DNA of 14,414 nt from Pseudomonadota bacterium (GTDB taxonomy: Bacteria; Pseudomonadota; Gammaproteobacteria; Xanthomonadales; Xanthomonadaceae), in NCBI GenBank assembly GCA_023391775.1, contig JAEWAG010000409.1:1-14414 (forward strand), read 5' to 3'. This document shows positions 1,724-14,414 of this stretch, one piece after another. The notes under the pieces are model-generated. The model was not told the DNA's origin, searched no databases, and saw nothing but the letters and a program-made list of their open reading frames with translations. The position numbers and the translations under genes are program-made. Position 1 is the first letter of the stretch; each line of letters begins with the position of its first letter.

Positions 1724-1749
1724 GGAAAGCGGGCCGATGCCCGCTTTCC
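1724..1749 (-). terminator. intrinsic terminator of the EF-hand gene
   Basis: A perfect 11-bp inverted repeat, GGAAAGCGGGC and GCCCGCTTTCC, is separated by a 4-nt loop. Read on the minus strand it begins 21 nt after the stop codon of the EF-hand gene and is followed by TTATAT, a short T-rich tail. The position between two same-strand genes fits termination of the EF-hand transcript before the HAD gene. Confidence 0.8.
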
Positions 1750-1770
1750 GAAGCGCCCGATGCGGTGCTG

Positions 1771-2148
1771 TTACTCCTGCGCGGCGCCCTGCTGCTGGTT
1801 CTGGATGAAGGTGCGGTACTCGTCGGCGGTCAGTTCGCCGTCGCCGTCGGCATCAGCGGTGCCGAACACGCCACTCAGCGCGGAATGGGCCTGGGCCTCG
1901 GTACGGCTGATGCTGCCGTTGCCGTCGGTATCAAGGTCCGCCCAGCCCTGGCCCTGGCCGCTGGCGCCGGACTGCTGGCGCTGCTGCTCGGCGGCGCCAG
2001 TCGCGGTCTCGCTCTGGGTCTGGGTCTGCTGCGCCTGCGGCACCTGCTGCTGGGTGGGCGTGGTGCTCTGCGCGAACGCGAGCGGCGCGGCGGCAATCAT
2101 GCCCAGGAACAGCAGGCCGGTCGGGGTGCGGGTGTTGTGCTTGTTCAT
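1771..2148 (-). CDS. secreted protein with two EF-hand calcium-binding loops
   Basis: The 125-residue product has a signal peptide (about 1-26, ending in PLAFA before QS), so it is exported. A glutamine-, serine- and threonine-rich linker (27-68) precedes two canonical 12-residue EF-hand loops, DTDGNGSISRTE (73-84) and DADGDGELTADE (99-110). Both keep the acidic or Asn ligands at positions 1, 3 and 5, glycine at 6 and glutamate at 12. Small EF-hand proteins of this layout are common in Xanthomonadaceae, but their function is not known; calcium binding in the periplasm is the only role the sequence supports. The ATG is preceded by GGAG 8 nt upstream. A strong terminator follows the stop, so the gene seems monocistronic. 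Confidence 0.9.
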   Translation of the reverse strand: MNKHNTRTPTGLLFLGMIAAAPLAFAQSTTPTQQQVPQAQQTQTQSETATGAAEQQRQQSGASGQGQGWADLDTDGNGSISRTEAQAHSALSGVFGTADADGDGELTADEYRTFIQNQQQGAAQE

Positions 2149-2354
2149 TGGGGGTACTCCGTCGGGTGGAAGGACGTGTCTGCATGTCGCAGGTCACGGC
2201 CCGCACCTTGCACCGCCGCGGATGAACCGGATTTGCGCCCCGATCGCACGGAGAACGGCCTCTTAACCACCGCGGCGGGAGCGCGTTGTAGCCGCTCGTT
2301 AGGCGCGTGTGGATGCGCCGTTAGCAGGCAATTCAACCCGTTGCGGAAAACGGT
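2149..2354. other. intergenic stretch upstream of the EF-hand gene
   Basis: This 206-bp gap has no convincing gene. On the minus strand, just after the membrane-protein stop, lies an imperfect stem (CCGTT / AACGG, 2334-2354), too weak to call a terminator. At 2297-2324 the hexamer CGTTAG occurs twice, 22 bp apart, bracketing an inverted repeat GGCGC / GCGCC with an 8-nt loop. The promoter of the EF-hand gene should be here, but I could not pick good -35 and -10 boxes. Confidence 0.45.
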
Positions 2355-2747
2355 TTAGTCGCCGCGCCCGATGTCCGTGGAGGCGTCACGCGCGGCCGGC
2401 CGCGCGCTGAACAGCCACCAGCCCAGCACGGTGCCACTGACGGCACCGATCACTTCGAACAGCACGCGGGTGCCCAGGTTGTCCGCATCGTGGATGCCGG
2501 CCAGCGCCAGCCGCGCGTACAGCGGCGACTCGAGCTTGACCATGCCGATGTAGAACAGGTTCCAGATGTCCAGGCCGGCGCTGATGACCACGGCGATCAC
2601 CGCCGCCCATCCGACCATGTGGCCGATCGGCATCTGCGTGCGCCGACCCAGCCAGGACCACAGCCCGTACACCAGCACGCCAATGAGGAAGGCGATCAGG
2701 CCGGCTTCAAGGCAGCCAAGCAGGCCGGTGTGCAGGGGCAGGTTCAT
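2355..2747 (-). CDS. small inner-membrane protein with three predicted helices
   Basis: From the ATG at 2747 the protein is 130 residues. An in-frame GTG at 2792 would add 15 residues (MAARLCALC...), but it has no good ribosome site, while AAGGA lies 12 nt before the ATG. Three hydrophobic segments are visible at about 8-33, 43-65 and 94-114. Each contains an acidic residue (E14, D60, E98), which is unusual in a membrane helix and might mark a functional pore or proton site. I do not recognise the family. It is the last gene of the leftward series, 66 bp after the CPXCG gene, so it may be co-transcribed with the dipeptidase and serine hydrolase, but nothing in its sequence ties it to cell-wall metabolism. 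Confidence 0.75.
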   Translation of the reverse strand: MNLPLHTGLLGCLEAGLIAFLIGVLVYGLWSWLGRRTQMPIGHMVGWAAVIAVVISAGLDIWNLFYIGMVKLESPLYARLALAGIHDADNLGTRVLFEVIGAVSGTVLGWWLFSARPAARDASTDIGRGD

Positions 2748-2813
2748 GGGCGGGCGCGGTCCTTGGCAAAGGGCGCACAGTCTAGCCGCCACTTCGCCGG
2801 TGGTGGCACCGGC

Positions 2814-3002
2814 TCAGTCGCCGCCCTCGCGCGAGGCGGCCAGGCTCGCCTCGCACGCGTCGTCCACGTCCACCTGCAGCACGATCGGCCGGCAGCAGAC
2901 CTGGCAGTCCTCCACGTACTGCTGGTCGCCGGCGCTGGCGTCGACGGCGGTGTCATAGCGCTCCCCACACCACGGGCAGCGCAGGGGCAGCCACTGCAGC
3001 AT
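2814..3002 (-). CDS. CPXCG-motif cysteine-rich zinc-ribbon protein
   Basis: The 62-residue product starts at the ATG at 3002, whose A is also the last base of the TGA stop of the dipeptidase gene (TGATG), a layout that suggests translational coupling. CPWCG (C9, C12) and CQVC (C33, C36) form two knuckles of a probable zinc ribbon, with the QQYVEDCQVCCRP block (27-39) typical of the small CPXCG cysteine-rich family found in many Proteobacteria. No signal peptide is present. The family has no known function. An upstream in-frame start at 3068 is possible, but it would lie deep inside the dipeptidase gene and adds a stretch unlike the family. Confidence 0.85.
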   Translation of the reverse strand: MLQWLPLRCPWCGERYDTAVDASAGDQQYVEDCQVCCRPIVLQVDVDDACEASLAASREGGD

Positions 3003-3757
3003 CAGCGCACCGGAAAGTCGTAGGCGGTGGTCGCATCCGGCTCCGGCTGCAGGGTGTAGTGCCACCACTCGCCGGGATAGTTGCGGAAACCGGCGGTCTC
3101 CATGGCCGCGCGCAGGCGGTCGCGGTTGGCGCGCTGCTGCGGCGCGACCGGCGCGTCGGTATTGGCGACGGGATCGAAGAAGTCGAAGGGCGTACCCATG
3201 TCCAGCGGCTGGCAGGCGGCGCCCGCGTCGCAGCGGACCAGGGTCAGGTCCACGGTGGCACCGCGGCTGTGGCCGGAACTGTCGGCGATGTAGCCAGGCA
3301 CCAGCGTGTTCTTGTCCAGACGTGGGTACCAGCGTGCTCTGAGCGCGGGGTCGTCTGGCGCCTGCGCCCAGCGCATGAATGCCTGCACCGAATGCACCGG
3401 GCGATAGCAGTCGTACACCAGCAGGCCCAGCCCCTCCTCCTCCAGCGCCGCCTGCACGCGGGCCAGGGCCTCGGCGGCCGGGCGCAGCAGCAGGCAGCGC
3501 GCGGCCTCGTAGCCGGGCACCGGCGCGCCGGTGAAATTGTCGCTGCCGGCGTAGCGCACCTCGGTGCGGATCGACGGGGCCAGGGCCTGCACGTCGACCA
3601 TGCCTGCAGCCGCCGCGTCGGACGCAGGCGAGACCCGCACCTGGGCGCCGGCCAGCGCCGGCACCAGCAGCAGCGCCGCGGCGATCGACCCGGCCTGTCG
3701 CCGGCAGCGTTCAGCCGCAGTCGCCGGTGCGCTGGAACGCGAGGTCCTCGTAGTCAT
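3002..3757 (-). CDS. exported D-alanyl-D-alanine dipeptidase (VanX/DdpX type, peptidase M15D)
   Basis: This 251-residue zinc peptidase is expected to split D-Ala-D-Ala or related D-dipeptides. The family signatures are YAGSDNFTG (69-77), VYDCYRP (114-120, with transition-state R119), SGHSRGATVDLTL (161-173, zinc ligands H163 and D170) and EWWHY (230-234, catalytic E230 and ligand H233). A hydrophobic segment at about 24-38, ending ALAGA, looks like a signal peptide after a long arginine-rich n-region, so it should work in the periplasm, unlike cytoplasmic VanX. The ATG at 3757 is the only usable start before residue 53; GGAGG lies 12 nt upstream. The start overlaps the serine hydrolase gene by 47 nt and the stop overlaps the CPXCG gene by one base. 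In this locus it would release D-alanine from cell-wall peptides. Confidence 0.93.
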   Translation of the reverse strand: MTTRTSRSSAPATAAERCRRQAGSIAAALLLVPALAGAQVRVSPASDAAAAGMVDVQALAPSIRTEVRYAGSDNFTGAPVPGYEAARCLLLRPAAEALARVQAALEEEGLGLLVYDCYRPVHSVQAFMRWAQAPDDPALRARWYPRLDKNTLVPGYIADSSGHSRGATVDLTLVRCDAGAACQPLDMGTPFDFFDPVANTDAPVAPQQRANRDRLRAAMETAGFRNYPGEWWHYTLQPEPDATTAYDFPVR

Positions 3758-5270
3758 AGCTGAAGTCCGCCTCCGGATCGACCTTGGAAAGCCGCAGGGT
3801 AGCCTCCCCGTCGCCGGGCGGGTGAAGCCAGGCCTCCGCGTCGACCGAATCCTCGTCCCAGTCCACCAGCCAGCGCGCGTCCACCCGCATCAGGCGGCCG
3901 CGCAGGCGCGGCGAACGCGCCGAGGCCAGGGCGATGCCGTCCGCGCGCGGGCATACGCCGATTTCGCCGAACCACGGGTCGCGCCACACCCCCAGCAGCG
4001 CCGCCGTTTCGCTGGCGGTGGCCGGACGCCGCGCGGAGGTATCCGGCAACGGCTGCGCCGCGCGCCGCGCTTCGCGCTCGCGGTCCAGCAGGCCCGCGTA
4101 GTGCGCCACGTCCAGCGACGCATCCGGCGCGGTGTAGTGCTTGAGCAGCACCTGCCCCAGCACGGTGCGCGCGTCTTCGGGCTCGCCGTTGACCAGGATG
4201 ACGATGCCCACGCGCCGGTCCGGCAGCAGGATCGTGGAGGAGTACATGCCGGACAGCGTGCCGGTATGGGCCACCTTCCACTGCCCGTCCACGTCCGACA
4301 GGCGCCAGCCGTAGCCGTAGGCATGGAAGTGGCTGTTGTCCCAGGCGCGCATGCGCTCGCCCACCGGCATGGGCATGTGCCCGGTCCAGGCCGCGCGACG
4401 CTGTGCCGGCGACAGCCACGGCTCGGACGGGTCCAGCCAGGCGCGCACCCAGCGCAGCATGTCATCCAGGCCGCAGCGGATGCCGCCGGCGGCCATCGAG
4501 GTGATGTCCGGCACCTCGCCGCGCTCGGCCGCGGCGGGAAGGTTGCGGCCCTGTACGCGCCGGTGCGGGCGTGCGACCGGGCCGGCCTGCTCCACCTGCC
4601 ACGCACCGACGCGACATCCGTCCATGCCCAGCGGCGCGAACACCTGCTCGCGCACCAGTTCCGCGTACGGCTTGCCGCCGGCGGCGGCCGCCACCTCGCC
4701 GGCCACCACGTACAGCAGGTTGTCGTAGGCGTAGCCGGAGCGGAAGCTGGTCACCGGGCGCAGATGCGCCAGCCCGGCGATGATGTCCTCGCGGCTGAAG
4801 TCGTTCGGCTCCGGCCACAGCATCAGGTCGCCGGCACCCAGCGGAAGGCCGCTGTTGTGTATGAGCAGGTCGCGCACCTGCATCTGCTGCGTGACCCACG
4901 GGTCGTGCATGCGGAAATCCGGCAGGTGCCGGGTGACCGGGTCGTCCCAGCGCAGGCGACCCTGGTCCACCAGCCGCGCCAGCACCGCCGCGGTCATGGC
5001 CTTGGTATTGGAGGCGATCTTGAACAGCGCCTCGGGCGTAACCGGCTGGCCGCTGCCGGCGGCCAGCTCGCCGCGGGTCACTACCGCAACGACCTCGCCG
5101 TCCTCGACCACGCCCACGGCGATGCCCGGCAGGTCGTAGCGGGCCACGGCGGCGTCCACCGCCTGTTCGACCCTGGCCTGGGCCGGCACGCGCTCCGCGG
5201 CGGCCGCGCCCGCAGGCGGGCAAAAAAATGCGGCCACCAGGGCGGCCGCAAGTGGGAGGAAACGATGCAT
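3711..5270 (-). CDS. exported serine hydrolase of the beta-lactamase / class C penicillin-binding family
   Basis: From the ATG at 5270 the protein is 519 residues; GGAG 6 nt upstream supports this start over an in-frame GTG at 5282. A signal peptide covers about 1-24 (hydrophobic LPLAAALVAAFF). The catalytic triad motifs of class C serine hydrolases are complete: SNTK (S87-K90), YDN (Y182, N184) and HTG (335-337). The C-terminal part (about 400-519, LLGVWRDPWFGEIGV...) resembles the DUF3471-like beta domain of this family. Members include D-aminopeptidases, DD-carboxypeptidases and esterases; exact activity cannot be read off. Next to a D-Ala-D-Ala dipeptidase, action on D-amino-acid ends of cell-wall peptides is the best guess. 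It follows the TonB receptor gene by 55 bp, with a strong hairpin between them, and overlaps the dipeptidase gene. Confidence 0.93.
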   Translation of the reverse strand: MHRFLPLAAALVAAFFCPPAGAAAAERVPAQARVEQAVDAAVARYDLPGIAVGVVEDGEVVAVVTRGELAAGSGQPVTPEALFKIASNTKAMTAAVLARLVDQGRLRWDDPVTRHLPDFRMHDPWVTQQMQVRDLLIHNSGLPLGAGDLMLWPEPNDFSREDIIAGLAHLRPVTSFRSGYAYDNLLYVVAGEVAAAAGGKPYAELVREQVFAPLGMDGCRVGAWQVEQAGPVARPHRRVQGRNLPAAAERGEVPDITSMAAGGIRCGLDDMLRWVRAWLDPSEPWLSPAQRRAAWTGHMPMPVGERMRAWDNSHFHAYGYGWRLSDVDGQWKVAHTGTLSGMYSSTILLPDRRVGIVILVNGEPEDARTVLGQVLLKHYTAPDASLDVAHYAGLLDREREARRAAQPLPDTSARRPATASETAALLGVWRDPWFGEIGVCPRADGIALASARSPRLRGRLMRVDARWLVDWDEDSVDAEAWLHPPGDGEATLRLSKVDPEADFSYDYEDLAFQRTGDCG

Positions 5271-5285
5271 CACAGGCTCCACCGG

Positions 5286-5318
5286 GCGGGCCGGCCGGGA
5301 GGGAACCGGCCGGCCCGC
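5286..5318 (-). promoter_or_regulatory. strong intercistronic hairpin between receptor and serine hydrolase genes
   Basis: A perfect 13-bp inverted repeat, GCGGGCCGGCCGG and CCGGCCGGCCCGC, with a 7-nt loop, fills most of the 55-bp gap. It starts 7 nt after the receptor stop codon and ends about 15 nt before the next ATG. There is no T run after it on the minus strand, so it is not a classic intrinsic terminator. It may be a 3' stabiliser of the receptor mRNA, a partial terminator that lowers downstream expression, or a modulator of initiation at the serine hydrolase gene. Confidence 0.7.
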
Positions 5319-5325
5319 ATTGCCA

Positions 5326-8300
5326 TCAGAAGTTCCAGGTCACCACCAGCTGCGCGTAGCGCGGGGACTGCCAGCGCGTGCCGGTGCCGAAGGTCGGCCG
5401 GTAGTCGCCGGGCTGCTTCTCGTAGCGGGCGCGCACGTTGATGACTTCCTGGTCGTTGAGCAGGTTGTACACCGACAGGCGCACCTTCAGGTCGATGTCC
5501 TCCACCGGCAGCGCCCAGGTCACGCTGGCACCGACGTTGTAGATCCACGGCATGCGCCCGAACGCGCCGCGCGGCGAGTACTGGTACTCGCGCTCGGCAT
5601 TGGGCGCGGTGCAGTTGGCCACGCAGATCCAGCCGGTGCCACCGCCGCTGCCCTCGCTGGTGTAGCTGGCCACCGAGTCCTCGCCCGGCCAGGAGGTGCC
5701 GAAAGCGGTGATCGGGCCGCCGGACAGCGCGGTGACCGTGCCGCCGAACAGCCACTGCTCGTTGAGCCGGTAGCTGCCGCGCAGCTTGACCTGGTGGCGG
5801 TGGTCGTTGAACAGGTCGCCGTAACGCTGGTTGTTGGCCGGGTGGTCCCAGTGCTGGACCATGCCGGTGTCGCCGTAGTTGGTGTCGGAGTTGACCGGGC
5901 CTTCGTGGTTGCCCTCCAGCTTGGACCACAGGTACGAGGCGTTGAACGCCCACTTGTCATCCCAGGCGCGGTCGATCTGCAGCTCCACGCCCTTGTAGGT
6001 GCGCTCGGGCTTGAAGTAGCCGATGACCTGGTTGCTGCCGGCCATCATGTAGCCCTCGCGGGAGGTGTCGATGGTCACCCAGCCGTCCTGCGCGCAGCCC
6101 ATGTCGGTGGTGCCCCACAGGGTGACCTTGTCGCCGGGGTTGGCAATCGGCCACAGGTTGCTGTGGCGCACGCCGCACAGGGCGTTGATGCGCATGTCGT
6201 CCACCGCGTGGGTCATGTCGCGGTAGGTCGCGTTGACGCCCCAGGACCAGGCCTGGTCGATCATGCTCTGGAAGCCGAGGATGTACTCGTCCTGGTACAT
6301 CGCCTCCAGGTCGCGGTCCACGCTCTGCCGCAGGTCGCCGACGCCGATGTTCATGTCATCGTCCACTCGCCCGATCTGCGCGCCCAGCACCGGGTTCATG
6401 TAGGCGGTGCCGGTGACCGGGTTGGTAGCCGTGGCCCAGCCGTCCAGCGCGTAGTAGGTGTACTCGTCGACCAGGCCGCCGGCGAAGGTGTAGTTGATGA
6501 TGTTGTTGACCGGCAGGTAGTAGCGGCCGGCGTTGCCGAACAGCTTGGTGCGGCCGTCGCCGCGCACGTCCCAGGAGAAGCCCAGGCGCGGGGAGACCAG
6601 GTCGTCGAGCTTGATGAAGCTGGAGCCGGTGGCGGTCTTGTAGTCCAGGCTGTCCACGCGCACGCCGATGTTCAGCAGCAGGTTCTGGGTGACGCTCCAG
6701 TTGTCCTCGATGTACCAGGCGCTGGCCTCGGTATCGAACACGCCGCCGTCGCGGCGCTCGCGGCCCATGGCCACGGCGCTCACCCCGGCCGGCACGGCGG
6801 CGCCGTTGCCCAGCACCGCGCCCGGCGCGTAGGAGTAGATGGTGTAGCGCTGCGCCGTCGGACCCGGATAGAAGGTCGTGCGGTCGGTGGTCATGGTCTC
6901 GGTGTCCACGCCGAGCCGCAGCAGGTGGTTGCCCAGGCTCCACTCGAAGTCCAGGCGGGCCACCTCGCGTTCGTCGTGGTGGTCGACCACCGAGGCCGAG
7001 GAGCTGGGGTGGCAGCTCACCGGCGGGCGGCCCATCACCGTGTACACCGCGTTGTAGCTGGAGTTGATGATCACCTGGGCGCATTCCAGGTCCGAGGGCG
7101 AGGTGACCACGCTCTTGCTGCGGTTGGTGCCCCACATCGCCTTGGCCACCAGGTTGTCGCCGAAGCGGCCGGTGTAGGTGACCGAGCCGCTCTTGCCGCC
7201 GCTCTCGGCGGTGCTCACGCCGCTGATGTCGCCGCGCTCGCGCCCGTCCCAGTCGTAGGCGTAGCTGGTGGTGTCGGTCTCGGCCTCGTCGGAGAAGGCC
7301 AGCAGTTCCAGCAGGTGGTTCTCGTTGATGTTCCAGTCCAGCTTGGCGCCCCAGAACCCGTTGTTGGCGTCGCCGTCGTGCCAGCTGGCGCCGGAATTGA
7401 GGGTGTAGCCCGAATCGACCTGCTGCTGCTCGTACATGGCGAACAGGAACAGGCGGTCGTTGACCAGCGGGCCGGAGGCCCAGACGTTGCCCTTGACCAG
7501 GCTGCTGCGGTCGCGGCTGGAGCGGTAGTCCACCGGCACCGGGTTGCCGGCGCCGTCCACGTCGTAGAAGCGGTGGTCCTCGGCGGTGGAGCTGAGCGCC
7601 TCCGGCTCGAAGGTGAACTCCACGCCGCCGCGCACCTCGTTGCTGCCGGAGCGGGTGACCGCGTTGATCACGCCGCCGGTGCTGCGCCCGACCTCGACCG
7701 AGTAGCCGCCGGTCTTGATCTGGAACTGGTCGATGAAGGCGAACGGCGCGGTGGAGAAGCTCTGCCGGCGGTAGAAGTCGGTGACGTTGAGGCCGTTGAT
7801 GTAGACCGAGTTCTCGGCAATCGACGAGCCGCCGAAGGAGATGCCGCCCAGCGAGGAGTTGCCGCCGATCACGCCCGGGGCCAGCAGCGCGACCGAGCTG
7901 AGGTCCTGCGGCACCGGCAGCCGGGCGATGTCCTCGCGGCTGACGTTGGTCGCCGTCTCGATCGAGAACACGTCCACGCGGTTGACCACCCGCGAGCCGA
8001 CCACCTCGATCGCATCGAGGTTGGCCACGGCGCCGTCGCTGCCCAGGTTCACCGAAGTGGTGCCACCCAGGGCGACGCTGACCTCCACCGGCTCGCCCAC
8101 CGGCTGCCCGTCGCGCAGCACCTGCAGCCGGTAGTTGCCGACCGGCAGCTGGCTCAGGCGGTAGCTGCCGTCGCCGCTGGCGGTGACCGTGCGGCTCAGC
8201 CCGGTCTGCTGGCTGGTCAGCACCAGCTGGTCGCCGGCCGTCGCCCGTCCCGCCACCGCGCCGGTGGCACTCTGCGCCATCACCACCGGCGCCATCGTGC

Positions 8301-8358
8301 CAAGGCACGCACCCAGCGCCACTGCCAGCGCCGCTTTCCTCACGATCCTGCTGTTCAT
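5326..8358 (-). CDS. TonB-dependent outer-membrane receptor, Oar-like with carboxypeptidase-regulatory domain
   Basis: The 1010-residue protein has a signal peptide (1-28, ...APVVMA before QS), a carboxypeptidase-regulatory-like beta domain (about 30-105, containing DGSYRLSQLPVGNYRLQV-type strands), a TonB-box-like AIEVVGSR (116-123), a plug domain (about 130-245, with DVSYINGL-like and GGYSVEVGRSTGGVINAVT motifs) and a long barrel ending in ...VVTWNF with the terminal phenylalanine needed for barrel assembly. It should import a large solute across the outer membrane with energy from TonB. Several extracellular-loop-like stretches carry cysteine pairs (for example WICVANC). The start at 8358 shares ATGA with the stop of the transglutaminase-like gene; GGGAG lies 10 nt upstream. 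The substrate is unknown. The surrounding peptidases suggest cell-wall peptides, but this is inference, since Xanthomonadaceae have many such receptors. Confidence 0.95.
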   Translation of the reverse strand: MNSRIVRKAALAVALGACLGTMAPVVMAQSATGAVAGRATAGDQLVLTSQQTGLSRTVTASGDGSYRLSQLPVGNYRLQVLRDGQPVGEPVEVSVALGGTTSVNLGSDGAVANLDAIEVVGSRVVNRVDVFSIETATNVSREDIARLPVPQDLSSVALLAPGVIGGNSSLGGISFGGSSIAENSVYINGLNVTDFYRRQSFSTAPFAFIDQFQIKTGGYSVEVGRSTGGVINAVTRSGSNEVRGGVEFTFEPEALSSTAEDHRFYDVDGAGNPVPVDYRSSRDRSSLVKGNVWASGPLVNDRLFLFAMYEQQQVDSGYTLNSGASWHDGDANNGFWGAKLDWNINENHLLELLAFSDEAETDTTSYAYDWDGRERGDISGVSTAESGGKSGSVTYTGRFGDNLVAKAMWGTNRSKSVVTSPSDLECAQVIINSSYNAVYTVMGRPPVSCHPSSSASVVDHHDEREVARLDFEWSLGNHLLRLGVDTETMTTDRTTFYPGPTAQRYTIYSYAPGAVLGNGAAVPAGVSAVAMGRERRDGGVFDTEASAWYIEDNWSVTQNLLLNIGVRVDSLDYKTATGSSFIKLDDLVSPRLGFSWDVRGDGRTKLFGNAGRYYLPVNNIINYTFAGGLVDEYTYYALDGWATATNPVTGTAYMNPVLGAQIGRVDDDMNIGVGDLRQSVDRDLEAMYQDEYILGFQSMIDQAWSWGVNATYRDMTHAVDDMRINALCGVRHSNLWPIANPGDKVTLWGTTDMGCAQDGWVTIDTSREGYMMAGSNQVIGYFKPERTYKGVELQIDRAWDDKWAFNASYLWSKLEGNHEGPVNSDTNYGDTGMVQHWDHPANNQRYGDLFNDHRHQVKLRGSYRLNEQWLFGGTVTALSGGPITAFGTSWPGEDSVASYTSEGSGGGTGWICVANCTAPNAEREYQYSPRGAFGRMPWIYNVGASVTWALPVEDIDLKVRLSVYNLLNDQEVINVRARYEKQPGDYRPTFGTGTRWQSPRYAQLVVTWNF

Positions 8359-9923
8359 CCCGGTGTCTCTCCCACAGTGGTGTTGGTGTCGTCCCCGCCC
8401 GTCCGATTGCTGCCGTCGGCTGGCAGCATCCGCCACTGGAACCTGTAGTCCCACTGGTCGAAATAGAGGTTTCCGCCGCGCCATTCGGCCTCGCCACGCT
8501 GCGAGTCCACGGTCTCGGAGCGGAAGTGGGTCTTGGCGGGCACGAACCCGCGCGCGTAGTCGTCGTTGAAGGCGATGCGGTAGGCGTCCAGGCCGCCCAG
8601 GTAGAACCAGCGCAGCGCCGGGTCGTCGCTTTCCAGCAGGCCGGTGGTCACGTCCATCGGCAGCCAGCCGTAGGGCGCCAGGTACAGCCAGCCCCAGTCG
8701 TGCATGTTGTCGTACCCGACCGCGTCGTCCGAGTAGGTCCAGCCGGACTGCCAGCGCGCGGGGATGCCGTTGAGCCGCAGCAGCGAGATCAGCAGCAGGG
8801 TCTGCTGGCCACAGTCTGCGTGGCCGGCGGACAGGGCGTAGTCGCTGATGTTGGAGATGGTGGAGTACTCGCGCGCGCCGGCCCAGGGAATGCGGTCCAC
8901 CGCCTCGAACAGCTTCTGCGCGATGCGGTACGGATGCGTTTCTCCGCCCACCACCTCGCGCGAAAACGCGCGCAGCTGCGGGGTGAACACCACGTGCGGC
9001 GGGCGTTCCTCCAGGTAGGGCGTCAGTGCCGGGTCGTCGCGCGGCACCGGCACCACCGCGTCCGGGTCCACGGCCACGTGGCGCGCGTGCACGATCAGCT
9101 CGTAGGTGATGGAGAACGTGGTGGCCTCGCCGGCCCGTGCGGGCGCCTCCAGGTACACGGTGCGCATGGCCGTGTCCTCCGGGGCCACCTGGCCCCCGGC
9201 GGGCGTGGTGCGCAGCAGGCGGATGTCCTCCTGCTGGCCGGCGATGGCGCGCGGGAACGGAATCCACGCACGCACCGTCTCGCCGGGCGGAACCGCGTCC
9301 GGCTTGACCACCAGCGACTGGGTCACCTCCAGCCGGCGCGGGGCCACGCTGCTGGCGCCTCCAGCCGCGGCGGCGGCAAGCACTTCGGAATGATGCGGAT
9401 GCAGGCGCTCGAACGGGCCTTCGCTGAAGGGCCGCACCGGCGGTGCCCGCCGCGCCGCCGCCTCCGGGCTGAGCCGGAACAGGTTGGAAACCGAACGGTT
9501 GAACCAGCGGCGCTGGCCGTCGATATCCATGTGTTCGATCAGGCCGGCGCGGTCCCAGGCCTCGAACTCCGCCTCGTCCAGGTCCGGGATGGACTGGCGC
9601 AGCCGCGCCAGCACCGCGGCGCGGTCCAGGCTGAAGTCCATGCGGATGCGGCGCATGCGCTCGCGTTCGAACTCCAGCGAGCACCGCTGCGTGCCCGCCG
9701 GATTCCCATCGGCGAGCAGCGCAGCGATCCGGGCCTCCGCCTCGGCAAAGCGTCCGCTGTCCACCGCCGCCACGACCTGTGGCAACGGATCGGCGCCTGC
9801 GGCCATCGCACTCCCCAGTGCGAGGCACAGCAGCGCAACGATGCCGGATCCGGCAAGGCGCCCGGCACGGACGGGGGTCCGCGTGGTGGCACATGCCGCT
9901 GGCTGGCGAAGACGGGCTTCCAC
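8355..9923 (-). CDS. exported transglutaminase-like domain protein
   Basis: The frame is open far upstream, but the credible start is GTG at 9923, with GGAAG 7 nt before it. It gives a 522-residue protein with a twin-part signal: an arginine-rich n-region, then GIVALLCLALGSAMA (27-41). No in-frame ATG serves. After an N-terminal region of unknown fold (about 45-195) comes a beta-rich segment (about 200-290, with VRAWIPFP at 217-224, typical of the domain preceding transglutaminase cores) and the papain-like core: HADCGQQTLL (C371), NMHDWGWLYL (H408) and GWLPMDV (D424), a complete Cys-His-Asp triad. Bacterial members are usually cysteine proteases or amidases rather than crosslinkers. Its stop overlaps the receptor start by 4 nt, so the two are probably translated together. 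It is the first gene of the leftward transcript and should act in the periplasm. Confidence 0.9.
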   Translation of the reverse strand: MEARLRQPAACATTRTPVRAGRLAGSGIVALLCLALGSAMAAGADPLPQVVAAVDSGRFAEAEARIAALLADGNPAGTQRCSLEFERERMRRIRMDFSLDRAAVLARLRQSIPDLDEAEFEAWDRAGLIEHMDIDGQRRWFNRSVSNLFRLSPEAAARRAPPVRPFSEGPFERLHPHHSEVLAAAAAGGASSVAPRRLEVTQSLVVKPDAVPPGETVRAWIPFPRAIAGQQEDIRLLRTTPAGGQVAPEDTAMRTVYLEAPARAGEATTFSITYELIVHARHVAVDPDAVVPVPRDDPALTPYLEERPPHVVFTPQLRAFSREVVGGETHPYRIAQKLFEAVDRIPWAGAREYSTISNISDYALSAGHADCGQQTLLLISLLRLNGIPARWQSGWTYSDDAVGYDNMHDWGWLYLAPYGWLPMDVTTGLLESDDPALRWFYLGGLDAYRIAFNDDYARGFVPAKTHFRSETVDSQRGEAEWRGGNLYFDQWDYRFQWRMLPADGSNRTGGDDTNTTVGETPG

Positions 9924-9954
9924 GACGACACTTCCCGGGTGCGGTGGTGTTGCC

Positions 9955-9983
9955 GATGTAACACGCGCTGCGCACGCGGTCAA
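9955..9983 (-). promoter_or_regulatory. probable sigma-70 promoter for the leftward series
   Basis: On the minus strand TTGACC (9983-9978) is followed after 17 bp by TACATC (9960-9955), a good -35 and a moderate -10. Transcription would begin near 9948, leaving about 25 nt of leader with the GGAAG ribosome site and the GTG start at 9923. Confidence 0.5.
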
Positions 9984-9993
9984 TAATTTATTC

Positions 9994-10022
9994 TTGACTC
10001 GGCAAATATTCGGAATAACTAT
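9994..10022 (+). promoter_or_regulatory. probable sigma-70 promoter for the rightward series
   Basis: TTGACT at 9994-9999 is close to the -35 consensus. After 16-17 bp comes TAACTAT (10016-10022), a plausible -10. The predicted start site near 10029 leaves a short leader containing AGGGGAG about 7 nt before the ATG at 10056. The -10 overlaps the palindrome at 10013-10024. Confidence 0.55.
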
Positions 10023-10024
10023 TC
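10013..10024. promoter_or_regulatory. candidate operator palindrome in the divergent control region
   Basis: GAATA-AC-TATTC is a perfect 12-bp palindrome lying over the -10 of the rightward promoter. The half-site TATTC recurs at 9989-9993 and 10007-10011, and TATTCTT at 9989-9995 is repeated at 10020-10026, 31 bp apart (about three helical turns). This AT-rich block differs sharply from its GC-rich surroundings. It is a reasonable binding site for the MurR/RpiR-type regulator encoded downstream. That pairing is inference. Confidence 0.45.
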
Positions 10025-10055
10025 TTCCGCATACCTGCCGAAGGGGAGCACCACG

Positions 10056-11513
10056 ATGAGAGCGCTGTTTGCGCGCGGAACCCTGCACGGCCGGCGCGCC
10101 ACCTGCCTGGCCCGACCGTTGCTGGCCGGCCTGCTGCTGGCGAGCACCCTGCACGCCTGGGCGGCCACCCCGGCCGCGGCCGATACGCCCACGTCGGTGA
10201 TCGGCGTCAGCCTGGCCGACCTGGAGCCGCAGCACTGGATCGGCCAGCTGGACGAGCCCCACCGGGTGATCCTGGACCGCGCGGCCATCGACGCGCAGAA
10301 CGCGCGCATGCGCGCTTCCGATGCCTCGATCCACGACATCGCCGCCCTGCCCGACCCGCTGCCGCGCGCCTGGGTGCGCGAGCGGATCGAGTCCCTCTCC
10401 AGCCTGCCCACCCGCACCCTGTACGACGAACGCGGGCAGGTGGTGCCGGCCGCCGCCCTGGCGGAGCTGCAGCGGGCAGTGGCGCTGGAGACCATCCCGG
10501 CCAGCCAGCCGACGCGCTACGGGCTGGTGGTGCATCGCGCCGCGCTGCGCGCGTTCCCGACCGCGCTGCGGGTGTTCTCCACCGCCGGGGAAACGGATAT
10601 CGACCGCTTCCAGGAATCGGCGCTGTTCCCGGGTGATGCGGTGGCGGTCCTGCATGCCAGCCGCGACGGGCAATGGCTGTTCGTGGCCAGCGAGCGCTAC
10701 ATGGCCTGGATCGAGGCGCGCCACGTGGCCGTTGGCGACCGCGCCGCGGTGCTGGGCTATGCCAGCCGTGCGCCGTACATCGTGGTCACCGGCGCCCGGG
10801 TGCGCACCACCTGGACCCCGGAGGAGCCGCGCGTTTCGGACCTGCAGCTGGAGATGGGCCTGCGCCTGCCGCTGCGCACCGGCCTGCCGCCGGAGCGCCC
10901 GGTCAACGGCCAGCATCCCTACGCCTCGCACGTGGTCGACCTGCCGGCCCGGCGCAGCGACGGCAGCCTGGAGTTCGTGCCGGCGCTGGTGCCGCGCTCG
11001 GCCGACGTGGCCAGCGACTACCTGCCCCTGACCCCGGCCAACCTGATCACTCAGGCCTTCAAGTTCCTCGGGGAGCGCTACGGCTGGGGCCACTCCTACG
11101 ACGCGCGCGACTGTAGCGGCTTCGTCTCGGAGATCTACCGCAGCTTCGGCGTGCTGGTGCCGCGCAATACCCGCGACCAGGCGGTGAGCCCGGCCCTGGA
11201 CCGCATCGGCTTCGAGCCGTCCAGCGGCCGCGACGCACGCCTGGCCGCGGTGCGCGGGCTGCAGCCCGGCGACCTGGTCTACATCCCCGGCCACGTGATG
11301 ATGGCCATCGGCCACCAGGACGGCATGGCCTACGTGATCCACGACACCAATGGCGGCGGCTGGCGCGGCGCCGATGGCAAGCGCGTGCGCGCCGCGCTCA
11401 ACGGCGTGTCGGTCACCCCGCTGGAGCCGCTGTTGTTCGACGACGACGACAGCTACGTGGACCGCATGACCAGCATCCAGCGCCTCCGCCCGCGCACCGC
11501 TTCCCGGGACTGA
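10056..11513 (+). CDS. exported SH3-NlpC/P60 endopeptidase (YkfC-like gamma-D-glutamyl-diamino acid peptidase)
   Basis: The 485-residue protein has a signal peptide (about 1-37, LLAGLLLASTLHAWA), an N-terminal region typical of the NlpC/P60 stabilising domain (about 50-145), bacterial SH3-like segments (about 155-315, with MAWIEARHVAVGDR) and a C-terminal NlpC/P60 catalytic domain (about 325-480). Catalytic residues are visible as C353 in ARDCSGFVSEIYRSFG, H413 in GHVMMAIG and H429 in VIHD. Proteins of this architecture cut the gamma-D-Glu to diamino-acid bond of stem peptides, typically those with a free L-Ala, yielding L-Ala-D-Glu. The ATG has AGGGGAG about 7 nt upstream. It is the first gene of the rightward series, three bases before the epimerase gene that would use its product. 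The signal peptide places it in the periplasm. Confidence 0.94.
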   Translation: MRALFARGTLHGRRATCLARPLLAGLLLASTLHAWAATPAAADTPTSVIGVSLADLEPQHWIGQLDEPHRVILDRAAIDAQNARMRASDASIHDIAALPDPLPRAWVRERIESLSSLPTRTLYDERGQVVPAAALAELQRAVALETIPASQPTRYGLVVHRAALRAFPTALRVFSTAGETDIDRFQESALFPGDAVAVLHASRDGQWLFVASERYMAWIEARHVAVGDRAAVLGYASRAPYIVVTGARVRTTWTPEEPRVSDLQLEMGLRLPLRTGLPPERPVNGQHPYASHVVDLPARRSDGSLEFVPALVPRSADVASDYLPLTPANLITQAFKFLGERYGWGHSYDARDCSGFVSEIYRSFGVLVPRNTRDQAVSPALDRIGFEPSSGRDARLAAVRGLQPGDLVYIPGHVMMAIGHQDGMAYVIHDTNGGGWRGADGKRVRAALNGVSVTPLEPLLFDDDDSYVDRMTSIQRLRPRTASRD

Positions 11514-11516
11514 TAC

Positions 11517-12614
11517 GTGAAAATCACCGACATCGAACTGCGCATGCTGCGCGTGCCGCTGAAGACCCCGTTCAAGACCGCGCTGCGCACGGTGGACACG
11601 GTCGAGGACATCGTGGTCCTGGTGCGCACCGACACCGGCCATACCGGCCACGGCGAAGCGCCGGCCACCGCGGTGATCACCGGCGACACCCACGGCTCGA
11701 TCGCCGCGGCCATCGAGCGCTTCATCAAGCCGCGCCTGATCGGCCAGGAGATCGCCAACCTCAACCACATCTGCGGGCTGATCCAGGGTGCGCTGGAGCG
11801 CAACACCAGCGCCAAGGCGGCGGTCGAGATCGCGGTCTACGACCTGTGGGGCCAGCTCTACGGCGCGCCGCTGTACCGCATGCTCGGCGGCGGCGACCCG
11901 GTGATCACCACCGACATCACCATCTCCGTGGACCACATCGACAAGATGGTGGCCGATTCGATTTCGGCGGTGGAGCGCGGCTTCGACTCGCTGAAGCTCA
12001 AGGTGGGCAAGGACATCGGCCTGGACATCGAGCGGGTCAAGGCCGTGCACGCGGCGGTCGAGGGCCGTGCCCTGCTGCGCCTGGACGCCAATCAGGGCTG
12101 GACGCCGAAGCAGGCGGTGTTCGCCATGCACGCGCTGGAGAACGCCGGGGTCATGCTCGAGCTGCTGGAGCAGCCGGTGAAGGCCGCGGACCTGGAAGGC
12201 CTCAAGTACGTCACCGACCGGGTGCACACCCCGGTGATGGCCGACGAGAGCGTGTTCGGCCCCGAGCAGGTGTTCGACCTGATCCAGCGCCGCGCGGCGG
12301 ACATCATCAACATCAAGCTGATGAAGACCGGCGGCCTGTCCAATGCCATCCGCATCGCCGACATCGCTTCGATCTACGGCGTGCAGTGCATGATCGGCTG
12401 CATGATCGAGTCGGCCATCTCGGTGGCTGCCGCGGTGCACCTGGCGGTGGCCAAGTCCGGCGCGATCACCAAGGTCGACCTGGACGGCCCCTCGCTGGGC
12501 CAGTTCAACCCGGTCGAGGGCGGGGTGATCTTCAACGAATCGGAGATCAGCATCACCGAGGCGCCGGGCCTGGGCATCCGCCAGATCCGCGGGCTCGAGC
12601 CGCTGGCGCCCTGA
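11517..12614 (+). CDS. L-Ala-D/L-Glu (dipeptide) epimerase, enolase superfamily
   Basis: This 365-residue cytoplasmic enzyme has no signal peptide and converts L-Ala-D-Glu to L-Ala-L-Glu so ordinary dipeptidases can finish the job. It shows every key residue of the family: K160 and K162 in LKLKVG, metal ligands D190 (DANQGW), E218 (LEQPV) and D243 (ADESV), second catalytic lysine K267 (IKLMKTGG), and the VDLDGP motif with D321 and D323, the DxD pair that binds the dipeptide amino group and marks the L-Ala-D/L-Glu type (YcjG of E. coli, YkfB of B. subtilis). The start is GTG at 11517, only three bases after the NlpC/P60 stop, so the two are surely one transcript. Specificity for another dipeptide cannot be excluded, but the context supports L-Ala-D-Glu. 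Confidence 0.95.
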   Translation: MKITDIELRMLRVPLKTPFKTALRTVDTVEDIVVLVRTDTGHTGHGEAPATAVITGDTHGSIAAAIERFIKPRLIGQEIANLNHICGLIQGALERNTSAKAAVEIAVYDLWGQLYGAPLYRMLGGGDPVITTDITISVDHIDKMVADSISAVERGFDSLKLKVGKDIGLDIERVKAVHAAVEGRALLRLDANQGWTPKQAVFAMHALENAGVMLELLEQPVKAADLEGLKYVTDRVHTPVMADESVFGPEQVFDLIQRRAADIINIKLMKTGGLSNAIRIADIASIYGVQCMIGCMIESAISVAAAVHLAVAKSGAITKVDLDGPSLGQFNPVEGGVIFNESEISITEAPGLGIRQIRGLEPLAP

Positions 12615-12643
12615 GCGCGGGTTGCCACGCGACCGCCGGCCGG

Positions 12644-13504
12644 ATGAATATCCCTGCCATGCCGCCCCTGGTGAAGATCCGTTCCGAACGTGACCAGATG
12701 TCGGCCATCGAGCGCCGCATCGCCGATTTCATCCTGGAAAACGCCCACCTGCTGCGCGACTACTCCTCGCAGCAGCTGGCCAGCGCGCTGGGGGTGAGCC
12801 AGTCCTCGGTGGTCAAGTTCAGCCAGAAATTCGGCTTCCGCGGCTACCCGGACCTGAAGTACAGCATCGGCCAGGCCCTGGCCCGCAATGGCGACTCGGC
12901 TCCGGCTGGGGAGCCGCCGGAGCCGGGCGATGCCTACGCGCGGCTGGAGGAAGGGCTGCGCCGCAGCAAGGCCGCGGCCGAGGAGGAAACCCGGCTGCTC
13001 AATCCGCGCGAGCGGATCGAGGCGATCGTCGATCTGGTCGATGGCGCCGGCAAGGTGTTCGTCTGCGGCCTGGGCGACGACGGCCTGTTCGCGCGCGAGT
13101 TCGCCATGCGCCTGTCGTTGCTGGGCGTGCTCACCGTGCACCACGCCGACCCGATCCTGATGATGGCCAACCTCTCGGCGGCCCGCCCCGGCGACGTGCT
13201 GCTGCTGTTCTCCGAGTTCGGCCAGCTGCCGCAGCTGTCCCAGCTCAGCCGCCAGTTCCAGGCGTGCGAAGGCAAGGTGGTGTCGATCACCCGGCACACC
13301 GCCAACCCGCTGCGCGCGCATGCCGATGCGGCGCTGGCGGTGTCGGCGCACGATCCGGCACCGCACGTGGCCCAGCTGCTGTACCGCTCCTCGCTGCAGT
13401 ACCTGCTGGACTTCCTGTTCGTGCTGCTGTGCCAGGCCAACCCGGAGCGGCACCGGCAGCTCAACATCAACCTGGAACGCATCCAGCACCTGCTGGATAC
13501 CTGA
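12644..13504 (+). CDS. MurR/RpiR family transcriptional regulator
   Basis: The 286-residue protein has an N-terminal RpiR helix-turn-helix domain (about 8-80), with the recognition region SSQQLASALGVSQSSVVKF (41-59) followed by GFRGYPDLK, and a C-terminal SIS (sugar isomerase) domain (about 122-265). MurR of E. coli controls MurNAc use, and family members often sit with cell-wall recycling genes. Two phosphosugar-contact loops look changed: GLGDDG (142-147), where the usual small or serine residue is acidic, and FSEFGQ (189-194) in place of SxSG-type. The ligand may therefore not be a sugar phosphate. ATG 12644 is the first good start, 29 bp after the epimerase stop; a second in-frame ATG lies at 12659 and neither has a strong ribosome site. 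It probably controls both divergent transcripts. Confidence 0.92.
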   Translation: MNIPAMPPLVKIRSERDQMSAIERRIADFILENAHLLRDYSSQQLASALGVSQSSVVKFSQKFGFRGYPDLKYSIGQALARNGDSAPAGEPPEPGDAYARLEEGLRRSKAAAEEETRLLNPRERIEAIVDLVDGAGKVFVCGLGDDGLFAREFAMRLSLLGVLTVHHADPILMMANLSAARPGDVLLLFSEFGQLPQLSQLSRQFQACEGKVVSITRHTANPLRAHADAALAVSAHDPAPHVAQLLYRSSLQYLLDFLFVLLCQANPERHRQLNINLERIQHLLDT

Positions 13505-13512
13505 CCGTGCCG

Positions 13513-14337
13513 ATGCCGACCCTTTCCCTGCTTTCCACGGTGCGCTTCCCTGCCCTGCTCCACCTCGCAGGCGCGGTGGCGCTGCTGGCCGCGATGCTGC
13601 TGCCGGCGCCGGCGCGTGCCATAGCGTCTTCTACGGGCCTGGTCGATTCGCGCCAGGTGGTGCTGGTCACCTCTGACGGCTGGGATTCGAACCAGGCAAC
13701 GCTGCGGCGGTTCGAACGCGCCGGCGACACGCAGGCGTGGCAGGAAGTGGGCGCGGCCTTCGCGGTCAGCCTGGGTCGCAACGGCAGTGCCTGGGGCACC
13801 GGCCTGCACGCACCCGCCGACCAGGCCGCAGGCCCGGTCAAGCGCGAAGGCGACGGCCGCAGCCCGGCCGGCATCTTCGGCATCGGCCAGGCTTTCGGCT
13901 ACGCAGCCGACGCCGGTCCGCTACGCCTGCGCTACGAGCAGATGGATGCCACGGACTACTGCATCGACGTGCCGGCATCGCCGCTGTACAACCGCATCGT
14001 CGATTCGCGCGACGTTGGCGCCGCCGCGGTCGAGGGCTCGACCGAGCCGATGCGGCTGGACCTGCACAAGGACGGCGACCCGCGCTACCGCCTGGGCCTG
14101 GTGATCGAACACAACACCCGCGCCGAGCCGGACCAGGGCAGCTGCATCTTCGCCCACCTGTGGCGCACGCCCGGCGAGCCGACCGCCGGCTGCACGGCCA
14201 TGGCCGATGCCGACATGGAAGCGCTGCTGGCCTGGCTGGACCCGGCCGCCCAGCCGCGCTTCGTCCTCCTTCCGGTGGCCGAGTACAGGCGACTGGCCGC
14301 GCCCTGGCAGCTGCCGCTGGTGGAGGCCTCCCGGTGA
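13513..14337 (+). CDS. exported YkuD-type L,D-transpeptidase family protein
   Basis: From the ATG at 13513 the protein is 274 residues; an in-frame GTG at 13507 would add two and has a slightly better spaced GGA. A signal peptide covers about 1-36 (LHLAGAVALLAAMLLPAPARA). The C-terminal domain has the variant YkuD signature of the COG3786-like group: IEHN with H200, CIFAHLW (211-217, H215) and PTAGCTAM (223-230) with the probable catalytic C227, in place of the classic SHGCIR. The family forms or breaks L,D bonds on peptidoglycan; this branch is poorly studied. It begins 8 bp after the regulator stop and its stop overlaps the next gene, so it is part of the rightward operon. Whether it is a transpeptidase or an L,D-carboxypeptidase cannot be told. 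Confidence 0.88.
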   Translation: MPTLSLLSTVRFPALLHLAGAVALLAAMLLPAPARAIASSTGLVDSRQVVLVTSDGWDSNQATLRRFERAGDTQAWQEVGAAFAVSLGRNGSAWGTGLHAPADQAAGPVKREGDGRSPAGIFGIGQAFGYAADAGPLRLRYEQMDATDYCIDVPASPLYNRIVDSRDVGAAAVEGSTEPMRLDLHKDGDPRYRLGLVIEHNTRAEPDQGSCIFAHLWRTPGEPTAGCTAMADADMEALLAWLDPAAQPRFVLLPVAEYRRLAAPWQLPLVEASR

Positions 14338-14414
14338 GGTGGCCCGGCGCCACCGCGCGGGTGCTCATCGCCCTGGCAGCCGGCGCCGTGGTCGGCCTGG
14401 CCCTGGCCCAGGGC
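14334..14414 (+). CDS. start of a membrane protein, probably dicarboxylate/amino acid:cation symporter
   Basis: Only the first 27 codons are present. The GTG at 14334 overlaps the TGA of the preceding gene (GTGA) and has a perfect GGAGG 7 nt upstream (14322-14326), so initiation here is convincing. After MRWPGATA comes a hydrophobic helix, RVLIALAAGAVVGLALAQG. This resembles the first helix of sodium- or proton-coupled dicarboxylate/glutamate symporters (GltP/DctA family), which often read LIxLxxGxxxG. With so little sequence the family is a guess, though a glutamate or small-acid importer would fit the operon. Confidence 0.6.
   Translation, partial: MRWPGATARVLIALAAGAVVGLALAQG

What the first reader, a model, noticed from the sequence alone, without database searches (positions are those of the whole stretch)
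3002..14414. Divergent locus for capture and breakdown of peptidoglycan peptides with its own TonB receptor
Motifs identify an NlpC/P60 endopeptidase, L-Ala-D/L-Glu epimerase, D-Ala-D-Ala dipeptidase, class C serine hydrolase, YkuD protein and transglutaminase-like protein round one short control region, together with a MurR/RpiR regulator, a TonB receptor and a probable symporter. Known murein-peptide recycling genes (ykfABCD, mpaA-ycjG) pair an endopeptidase with the epimerase, but dedicated outer-membrane uptake is not part of them. The set suggests scavenging of cell-wall peptides from outside, as would suit a predatory or lytic bacterium, or recapture of its own released fragments.
Basis: partly seen in the sequence, partly recalled or inferred. 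Interest (0 to 1): 0.72.

Follow-up and report, generated by a model that had tools for sequence, protein, structure and literature searches.

The report
Cell-wall peptide scavenging locus with receptor
A conserved block of genes in Xanthomonas-like bacteria pairs an outer-membrane gate with enzymes that look fit to dismantle cell-wall peptides, apparently under one shared switch; the enzymes stay constant while the gate differs as if exchanged.

Summary
The window is Pseudoxanthomonas-like (nearest fetched locus: Pseudoxanthomonas sp. J31). Left arm: transglutaminase-like protein (TGL), TonB receptor, class C-type serine hydrolase, M15 dipeptidase. Right arm: NlpC/P60, Ala-Glu-type epimerase, RpiR, YkuD and the start of an SDF symporter.

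Of 80 named epimerase loci, 74 have enough flank: a TonB receptor lies within 10.2 kb upstream in 74 of 74, NlpC in 74 of 74, TGL in 69 of 74. In a wider set of 38 that I chose, 22 have a receptor. The motif GTCAATAAWTTATTC occurs in 81 of 92 loci with adjacent RpiR, 0 of 29 without, and once per genome in 11 of 12 genomes.

Distant loci join receptor, amidase and epimerase to MurQ and NamZ; one fuses TGL to YkuD and serine hydrolase to amidase. Receptor trees conflict with those of the neighbours.

Best reading: a RpiR-switched, TonB-dependent peptidoglycan-peptide uptake and breakdown locus. The ligand is not shown, a YkfC-defining residue is absent, and predation is untested. New variant of a known kind; a Bacteroidota precedent is in print.

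The parts
3002..3757 (-). D-Ala-D-Ala dipeptidase-like enzyme (peptidase M15, VanX/DdpX-like), export signal by eye
   Evidence: PF01427 155.9 bits; closest solved chain 1r44 D-alanyl-D-alanine dipeptidase, 157 bits; below the VanX and DdpX equivalog cut-offs
3711..5270 (-). Class C-type serine hydrolase, export signal by eye
   Evidence: PF00144 222 bits; best NCBIfam AmpH, far below its cut-off; its domain is fused to an Amidase_2 domain in L169
5326..8358 (-). TonB-dependent outer-membrane receptor, CarboxypepD_reg + Plug + barrel
   Evidence: Pfam; predicted model pLDDT 82, best PDB match FusA 4zgv; no second copy above 37% identity in six related genomes; tree conflicts with neighbours
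8355..9923 (-). Transglutaminase-like cysteine enzyme (TGL); GTG start and export signal by eye
9924..10055 (.). Divergent control region between the two arms
   Evidence: 132 bases
9979..9993 (+). Operator-like motif GTCAATAATTTATTC
   Evidence: GTCAATAAWTTATTC in 81 of 92 loci (window included) with RpiR next to the epimerase, 0 of 29 without; one copy per genome in 11 of 12 genomes
10012..10024 (+). Second palindrome-like element GGAATAACTATTC
   Evidence: Sequence and footprint; looser than the first: GAANNNNTATTC lies 18-19 bases after the motif in 41 of 87 motif copies
10056..11513 (+). NlpC/P60 endopeptidase with SH3b-type domain, export signal by eye
   Evidence: PF12913 and PF00877; [quoted passage not shown] catalytic Cys353 by alignment
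11517..12614 (+). L-Ala-D/L-Glu-type dipeptide epimerase, no export signal seen
   Evidence: PF13378/PF02746; closest solved chain 1jpm/1tkk L-Ala-D/L-Glu epimerase, 349 bits; nine catalytic, metal and substrate residues kept in 119-120 of 120 loci
12644..13504 (+). RpiR-family regulator (HTH_6 + SIS)
   Evidence: PF01418, PF01380; adjacent in 75 of 75 informative named loci
13507..14337 (+). YkuD-domain protein, export signal by eye
   Evidence: PF03734 at 23.8 bits, cut-off 23.4; in 62 of 75 informative named loci; fused to TGL in L169
14334..14414 (+). Start (27 codons) of an SDF-family symporter, cut by the window end
   Evidence: By eye matches the start of L001:12792-14069, PF00375 271.9 bits; GTG at 14334; SDF present downstream in 46 of 75 informative named loci

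Best explanation
The window holds a two-armed, RpiR-controlled locus for taking up and dismantling peptidoglycan peptides. Inferred steps: (1) a peptidoglycan-derived peptide or muropeptide too large for porins crosses the outer membrane through the dedicated TonB receptor; (2) in the periplasm exported enzymes trim it: the M15 enzyme and serine hydrolase act on D-Ala ends, TGL and the YkuD protein on further bonds, and NlpC/P60 cuts gamma-D-Glu-diaminopimelate to leave L-Ala-gamma-D-Glu; (3) products cross the inner membrane, perhaps in part through the SDF symporter; (4) the cytoplasmic epimerase turns L-Ala-D-Glu into L-Ala-L-Glu, which ordinary peptidases can use; (5) RpiR, bound between the arms, holds both off until a breakdown product is sensed. 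Shown here: gene content, conserved neighbourhood, a conserved motif that goes with RpiR, joining to MurQ/NamZ/amidase genes in distant loci. Inferred: export (by eye), ligand, direction, each cleavage, RpiR binding and its effector. The source of the peptides (own turnover, dead neighbours or prey) is open.
For: Receptor upstream of the epimerase in 74 of 74 informative named loci, NlpC 74 of 74, TGL 69 of 74, RpiR 75 of 75. Receptor (next best 37% or less) and TGL (no second match at E up to 1e-10) are single in six related genomes, at this locus. The motif goes with RpiR (81 of 92 against 0 of 29) and occurs once in 11 of 12 genomes, at this locus; in six loci (L019, L023, L024, L029, L030, L036) a second copy stands directly before a second receptor gene. 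Eight distant loci (L118, L119, L121, L123, L124, L125, L135, L136) have a receptor and an amidase beside the epimerase; MurQ is seen in six (L118, L119, L121, L123, L124, L135) and NamZ in five (L118, L121, L123, L124, L135) (L123, L124 and L118 proteins checked by profile). L169 adds domain fusions TGL-YkuD, amidase-serine hydrolase and BadF kinase-MurQ. The epimerase matches 1jpm/1tkk best and keeps R24, K160, K162, D190, E218, D243, K267, D321, D323. Where the type A receptor is missing (L018, L026, L029) a TonB receptor of another family is there.
Against: No ligand was tested. 16 of 38 informative loci of the wider set, which I picked for diversity, have the epimerase, most with NlpC, without a receptor upstream, so the enzymes work without it elsewhere. 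The window-like genomes lack MurQ above cut-off in 9 of 9, so the sugar part of the distant loci does not carry over. The NlpC protein lacks the acidic residue of YkfC. Epimerase, RpiR, M15 and serine hydrolase all score below the NCBIfam equivalog cut-offs. The YkuD match is marginal. The receptor end in L169 has no Pfam match; it rests on tblastn, 52% over 38% of the L124 receptor. RpiR-bearing loci look like one clade, so their link with the motif is not independent evidence, and 11 of 92 lack the exact motif.
Confidence: 0.6

Rival explanations
1. The enzymes handle peptidoglycan peptides, but the receptor and TGL bring in and cut something else, for example other peptides or small proteins, and share only the switch. 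TGL would then be a peptidase for the receptor's cargo.
For: Best structural match of the receptor is FusA, a ferredoxin receptor; TGL resembles a putative cysteine protease; the receptor tree conflicts with the enzyme trees, as if its ligand changed; 16 of 38 wider loci have no receptor upstream.
Against: TGL is fused to YkuD inside a MurQ/NamZ/amidase locus; receptors of other families at this place occur in loci that also hold an amidase (L018, L029, L115, L138-L140, L147). FusA is only the top of a long list of generic TonB receptors.
Confidence: 0.22
2. A narrower form of the best explanation: the locus recaptures the cell's own wall fragments that leak out during growth, with no role in feeding on other cells.
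For: Present in genera that I recall as mostly not predatory, such as Stenotrophomonas and Pseudoxanthomonas (names); epimerase in 123 of 299 genomes of the order; no glycan-cutting enzyme among the window proteins scanned.
Against: Also in Lysobacter, a genus that I recall as lytic. Nothing here separates own from foreign fragments; receptor exchange hints at an outside partner.
Confidence: 0.35
3. The receptor moves something outwards or serves the cell surface, as recalled for Oar-type proteins of Myxococcus, and is not an importer here.
For: CarboxypepD_reg plus OMP_b-brl_4 architecture.
Against: Joined to breakdown enzymes and a regulator that fits catabolism; generic receptor fold with plug.
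Confidence: 0.06
4. Neighbourhood by inheritance only: the receptor happens to stay beside the epimerase without functional link.
For: The named loci are, by their titles, nearly all one family.
Against: TonB receptors of other families at the same place, motif before receptor arms, joining in distant loci with different gene order.
Confidence: 0.04

Closest known systems
Bacillus ykfABCD murein-peptide genes (PMC2954226, passages seen)
   Same: NlpC/P60 gamma-D-Glu-diaminopimelate endopeptidase gene next to the L-Ala-D/L-Glu epimerase gene
   Different: B. subtilis YkfC has no signal peptide and its genes lie beside a dipeptide ABC transporter; here the NlpC protein looks exported, lacks Asp256, has no ABC transporter in the window, and a TonB receptor, TGL and RpiR are added
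E. coli mpaA-ycjG (recalled, and introduction passages of PMC2954226)
   Same: Endopeptidase plus epimerase for L-Ala-D-Glu
   Different: MpaA is an unrelated metallopeptidase; no outer-membrane receptor (recalled)
Murein locus of the Bacteroidota symbiont Urechidicola (PMC10199937, passages seen)
   Same: TonB-type transporters (SusCD) with murQ, nagB, ampG, Ala-Glu epimerase, ampD and carboxypeptidase; [quoted passage not shown]
   Different: SusD-paired receptors and a DeoR regulator; the window locus has no SusD match, no sugar genes, and has TGL, RpiR and NlpC/P60
Caulobacter GlcNAc clusters with TonB receptor (PMC13046382, passages seen)
   Same: Outer-membrane receptor in a cluster for a peptidoglycan-related compound
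   Different: Substrate is GlcNAc; the word epimerase does not occur in the paper and no peptide enzyme is named in the passages seen
Oar-type TonB receptors (name recalled)
   Same: CarboxypepD_reg domain, plug, long barrel
   Different: Ligand and direction unknown here; likeness judged from Pfam only

Membership tests
YkfC subfamily of NlpC/P60 | Catalytic Cys and gamma-D-Glu pocket (Tyr226, Trp228, Asp237, Cys238, Ser239 of B. cereus YkfC) | tested here: met
   Aligned to Y342, W344, D352, C353, S354; the catalytic His was not aligned to 3h41
[quoted passage not shown]
   Asn371, kept in at least 97% of 117 locus proteins
YkfC subfamily of NlpC/P60 | SH3b tyrosine Tyr118 | tested here: inconclusive
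   Y215 falls opposite the likely Tyr118 (chain numbering inferred), in a stretch that scores -3.5 bits; Y215 is kept in at least 97% of 117
L-Ala-D/L-Glu epimerase | Enolase-superfamily catalytic lysines, metal ligands, R24 and DxD for the dipeptide (roles recalled) | tested here: met
   R24 119 of 120, K162 119, K160, D190, E218, D243, K267, D321, D323 each 120 of 120; best PDB match 1jpm/1tkk
L-Ala-D/L-Glu epimerase | NCBIfam equivalog cut-offs (NF041118 500 bits, NF011708 343 bits) | tested here: not met
   253.5 and 103.3 bits
ykfABCD operon type | Dipeptide ABC transporter beside the enzymes | tested here: not met
   No such gene among the window proteins scanned; the window ends inside the symporter gene, so what follows it was not seen
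SusCD-type locus | SusD partner lipoprotein | tested here: not met
   No SusD match among the window proteins scanned
TonB-dependent receptor | Plug and outer-membrane barrel | tested here: met
   PF07715, PF25183; 513 Foldseek matches at E up to 0.001, the 50 shown being TonB-dependent receptors or transporters
TonB-dependent peptide importer | TonB-dependent uptake of a peptide | not testable with these tools
   Needs an uptake assay
MurR | NF012026 cut-off 408 bits | tested here: not met
   82.2 bits; it is an RpiR-family protein only
VanX / DdpX | Equivalog cut-offs 320 and 176 bits | tested here: not met
   193.9 and 121.1 bits; Pfam M15 met
Class C beta-lactamase | NF033085 cut-off 415 bits | tested here: not met
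   78.8 bits
Transglutaminase-like cysteine enzyme | PF01841 and Cys-His-Asp triad | tested here: met
   58.9 bits, cut-off 23; C371, H408, D424 invariant in 50 sequences, taken as the triad by position; activity unknown
YkuD L,D-transpeptidase | PF03734 cut-off 23.4 bits | tested here: met
   23.8 bits, marginal

The most novel reading that the evidence does not exclude
A TonB-dependent peptidoglycan-peptide utilisation system is a general trait of the Xanthomonadaceae, with a constant enzyme core and single RpiR switch but an exchangeable outer-membrane receptor: lineages swap the receptor gene alone, between the same neighbours, so as to match the wall peptides of different partners or to escape phages and bacteriocins that use it, while TGL is a new peptidoglycan-peptide processing enzyme that partners YkuD.
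Probability: 0.33. Interest if true: 0.75.

Novelty: new variant of a known kind. Interest (0 to 1): 0.56.

Why it matters
If true, recovery of wall peptides in these bacteria starts at the outer membrane and is an active, regulated uptake, not only recovery across the inner membrane as in E. coli. It would give a ligand class to TonB receptors with unknown substrates, a function to an uncharacterised transglutaminase-like family, and a ready test case of receptor exchange at a fixed locus.

Tried and rejected
Rejected: synteny by chance (density of plug domains; motif and other receptor families at the same place). Rejected: filing NlpC as YkfC (Asp256 absent) and RpiR as MurR. Considered and left open: the SDF symporter as a Glu or dipeptide carrier; in L001 the Arg that (recalled) holds the acidic side chain in GltPh-type carriers is Ala, which argues against acidic substrates; a quick pattern check read that position in only 20 hits (18 Ala, 1 Cys, 1 Ser) among 56 loci with SDF, so this is weak.

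Led nowhere: a promoter consensus scan found one weak + site and none of the -35/-10 pairs that I see by eye; sequence search of the PDB gave no receptor relative at E up to 0.01 and for TGL one chance-level match (E 0.73). Pseudomurein endoisopeptidases appear only as weak TGL matches (E 0.014 and above).

My own errors, found and corrected or discounted: TGL scanned in a wrong frame (redone); RpiR and YkuD queries in a wrong frame (redone); the symporter query in a wrong frame (0 hits, replaced by L001's gene); the query called TB_L138 was read in a wrong frame, so its label TBD proves nothing by itself. The receptors of L115, L138, L139, L140 and L147, counted among the 22 of 38, rest (in-frame query) and for L138 on Pfam; L037 is not counted. 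In one search neighbouring receptors of two types were merged under one label: type A is labelled in 68 of 74, and L042, L054 and L058 also have full-length type A frames, so 71 of 74. Receptors were counted upstream only; L134 (epimerase 33%) shows by eye a TonB-receptor-like frame downstream. My simple gene caller was poor in this high-GC DNA and no count rests on it. A draft of this report said that the second motif copy precedes the amidase; one search shows that it lies between amidase and second receptor, and in six loci, not five.

Most listed papers were not opened, so this is not proof of absence in print.
Full report
What is there. The window carries two divergent gene arms around a 132-base gap, 9924-10055. 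Left arm, minus strand: TGL 8355-9923, receptor 5326-8358 (overlap 4 bases), serine hydrolase 3711-5270 (55-base gap), M15 dipeptidase 3002-3757 (overlap 47). Right arm, plus strand: NlpC/P60 10056-11513, epimerase 11517-12614, RpiR 12644-13504, YkuD 13507-14337, SDF symporter from 14334. Gaps of 3, 29 and 2 bases and a 4-base overlap suggest one transcript per arm. By eye the five hydrolases and the receptor begin with export signals, and epimerase and RpiR do not. Families come from Pfam and NCBIfam.

Where it comes from. The best epimerase match in the genome collection is Pseudoxanthomonas sp. J31 (L001, 95-96%). No whole genome is held for the window.

Conservation. One scan gave 80 loci anchored on the epimerase (255 relatives were found, the best 80 kept; by their titles nearly all Xanthomonadaceae). 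With tblastn, NlpC and RpiR occur in 80 of 80, receptor in 75 (L029 and L051 only in part), TGL in 72, serine hydrolase in 69, YkuD in 64 and M15 in 46 (several loci are cut by contig ends). Among the 74 loci with at least 6.5 kb upstream a TonB receptor lies within 10.2 kb in 74, NlpC in 74, TGL in 69, serine hydrolase in 69, M15 in 40, amidase in 10; among the 75 with at least 4.5 kb downstream RpiR is in 75, YkuD in 62, SDF in 46. Ten genomes of the group hold 28-78 plug domains each, so a receptor by chance in 10 kb is expected in roughly 8-16% of cases. Receptor and TGL are specific: in six genomes the next best receptor is at most 37% identical and TGL has no second copy at E up to 1e-10.

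Wider set. In 299 genomes of the order 123 have the epimerase at E up to 1e-40. I fetched 40 regions, chosen for divergence and not at random. Of 38 with enough flank 22 have a receptor upstream and 16 do not; the latter include several NlpC-epimerase loci with M15 and/or amidase only, and L142, which kept TGL, RpiR and the motif but has neither NlpC nor receptor beside it. In a sample of 398 genomes of the phylum 11 have the epimerase at E up to 1e-60; I fetched the three that were new and divergent.

The bridge to peptidoglycan. Eight distant loci (L118, L119, L121, L123, L124, L125, L135, L136) put a receptor related to that of L124 (58-93% in tblastn) beside an amidase and the epimerase. 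MurQ is seen in six of the eight (L118, L119, L121, L123, L124, L135) and NamZ in five (L118, L121, L123, L124, L135); L125 and L136 are cut short on that side. NagA or NagB, a sodium:solute symporter, LD-carboxypeptidase and alanine racemase also occur. Profiles were run for proteins of L118, L123 and L124 only: NamZ, NagA, symporter, CarboxypepD_reg receptor, amidase, LD-carboxypeptidase, alanine racemase, MurQ, NagB. NamZ occurs in 15 of 299 genomes of the order, so this rich form is a minority. L169, from the phylum sample, carries RpiR, NlpC, epimerase, M15, NamZ and a class IV aminotransferase, and three fusions: TGL with YkuD, amidase with PG_binding_1 and the serine-hydrolase domain, BadF-type kinase with the MurQ region. 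The end of a receptor gene is seen there by tblastn only (52% over 38% of the L124 receptor; no Pfam match). These fusions tie the window's less clear members (TGL, YkuD, serine hydrolase) to wall breakdown. Of the other two phylum loci, L171 has a CarboxypepD_reg receptor and L170 has MurQ and NamZ but no receptor seen. Against a simple carry-over, nine window-like genomes have no MurQ above cut-off; all nine have Amidase_2 genes, outside this locus in all but G003. The window version therefore looks peptide-only.

The switch. GTCAATAAWTTATTC lies between the arms at 9979-9993. Over 121 loci, window included, it is found in 81 of 92 with RpiR next to the epimerase (80 of them 1.3-4.2 kb upstream of the epimerase, L142 nearer) and 0 of 29 without. 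With up to one mismatch it occurs exactly once in 11 of 12 whole genomes, at this locus; G004, the genome of L026, has none. In L019, L023, L024, L029, L030 and L036 a second copy stands directly before a second receptor gene, between it and an amidase gene. A second element, GAATA-NN-TATTC-like, follows about 19 bases on, more loosely kept. RpiR as the binder is inferred; RpiR-bearing loci look like one clade, so the association is not independent. Eleven RpiR loci lack the exact motif: L026, L065 (cut short), L071, L072, L076, L143, L144, L148-L151.

The receptor. Over 79 loci, window included, with all four proteins, pairwise tree distances of the receptor correlate 0.17-0.25 with those of epimerase, NlpC and TGL, while these three correlate 0.67-0.74 with each other. 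Among splits with support of at least 0.9, 38 of 56 receptor splits are contradicted by NlpC, against 12 of 50 NlpC splits by TGL. In that set the window and L001 are nearest relatives for epimerase, NlpC and TGL, yet their receptors are about 50% identical; DNA identity per 300 bases is 0.56-0.69 through most of the receptor gene, with one block at 0.78 near its 5' end, against 0.72-0.95 outside save 0.68 at 13401. G159 has a receptor 91% identical to the window's while its TGL is no closer than L001's. L018, L026 and L029 lack the type A receptor and TGL but have another TonB receptor family there. Some loci hold both types, so loss of one of two receptors explains part of this; the conflict within type A needs exchange or deep paralogy, which I did not separate.

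Print. Passages of PMC10199937 describe a Bacteroidota locus with SusCD pairs and murein genes including the epimerase; those of PMC13046382 link a TonB receptor only to GlcNAc in Caulobacter; PMC6090828 lists a dipeptide epimerase in a Xanthomonas table without this context; PMC5507952 shows no such locus in the passages seen. Other papers were seen in listings only.

Verdict. Not found in ten searches of open papers: the family-wide two-armed form with one RpiR-linked motif, the fusions that draw in TGL and YkuD, and the exchange of the receptor at a fixed place.

Noticed in passing
L062: Record titled Bacillus subtilis strain SK7B5 carries a Stenotrophomonas-like locus (epimerase 85%); the assembly is mislabelled or contaminated.
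   Followed up: no
L046 and L047: Two metagenome assemblies with the same layout and the same tblastn figures; probably one lineage counted twice in the named set.
   Followed up: no
window 936-2792: HAD hydrolase, EF-hand-like protein and small membrane protein (names by eye) keep their order beside the M15 gene in many Stenotrophomonas and Xanthomonas-like loci, also in L116 and L127 where no receptor is present.
   Followed up: partly
L001:12792-14069: SDF symporter has Ala at the place of an Arg of solved acidic amino-acid carriers, hinting at a neutral substrate.
   Followed up: partly
L026: Locus with RpiR but a changed motif (GTCAATTTTTTATTC in the upstream stretch) and a different receptor family; its genome G004 has no copy of the motif.
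   Followed up: no
L142: Keeps TGL, RpiR and the motif but has neither receptor nor NlpC beside the epimerase.
   Followed up: no
window 8355-12440 -: The TGL frame stays open far beyond its start, antisense to the right arm (1361 codons), an effect of the roughly 70% GC content; the extension is not a gene.
   Followed up: yes
L169:13844-15694: MurQ region fused to a BadF-type kinase domain, a possible MurNAc kinase-etherase in one chain.
   Followed up: no
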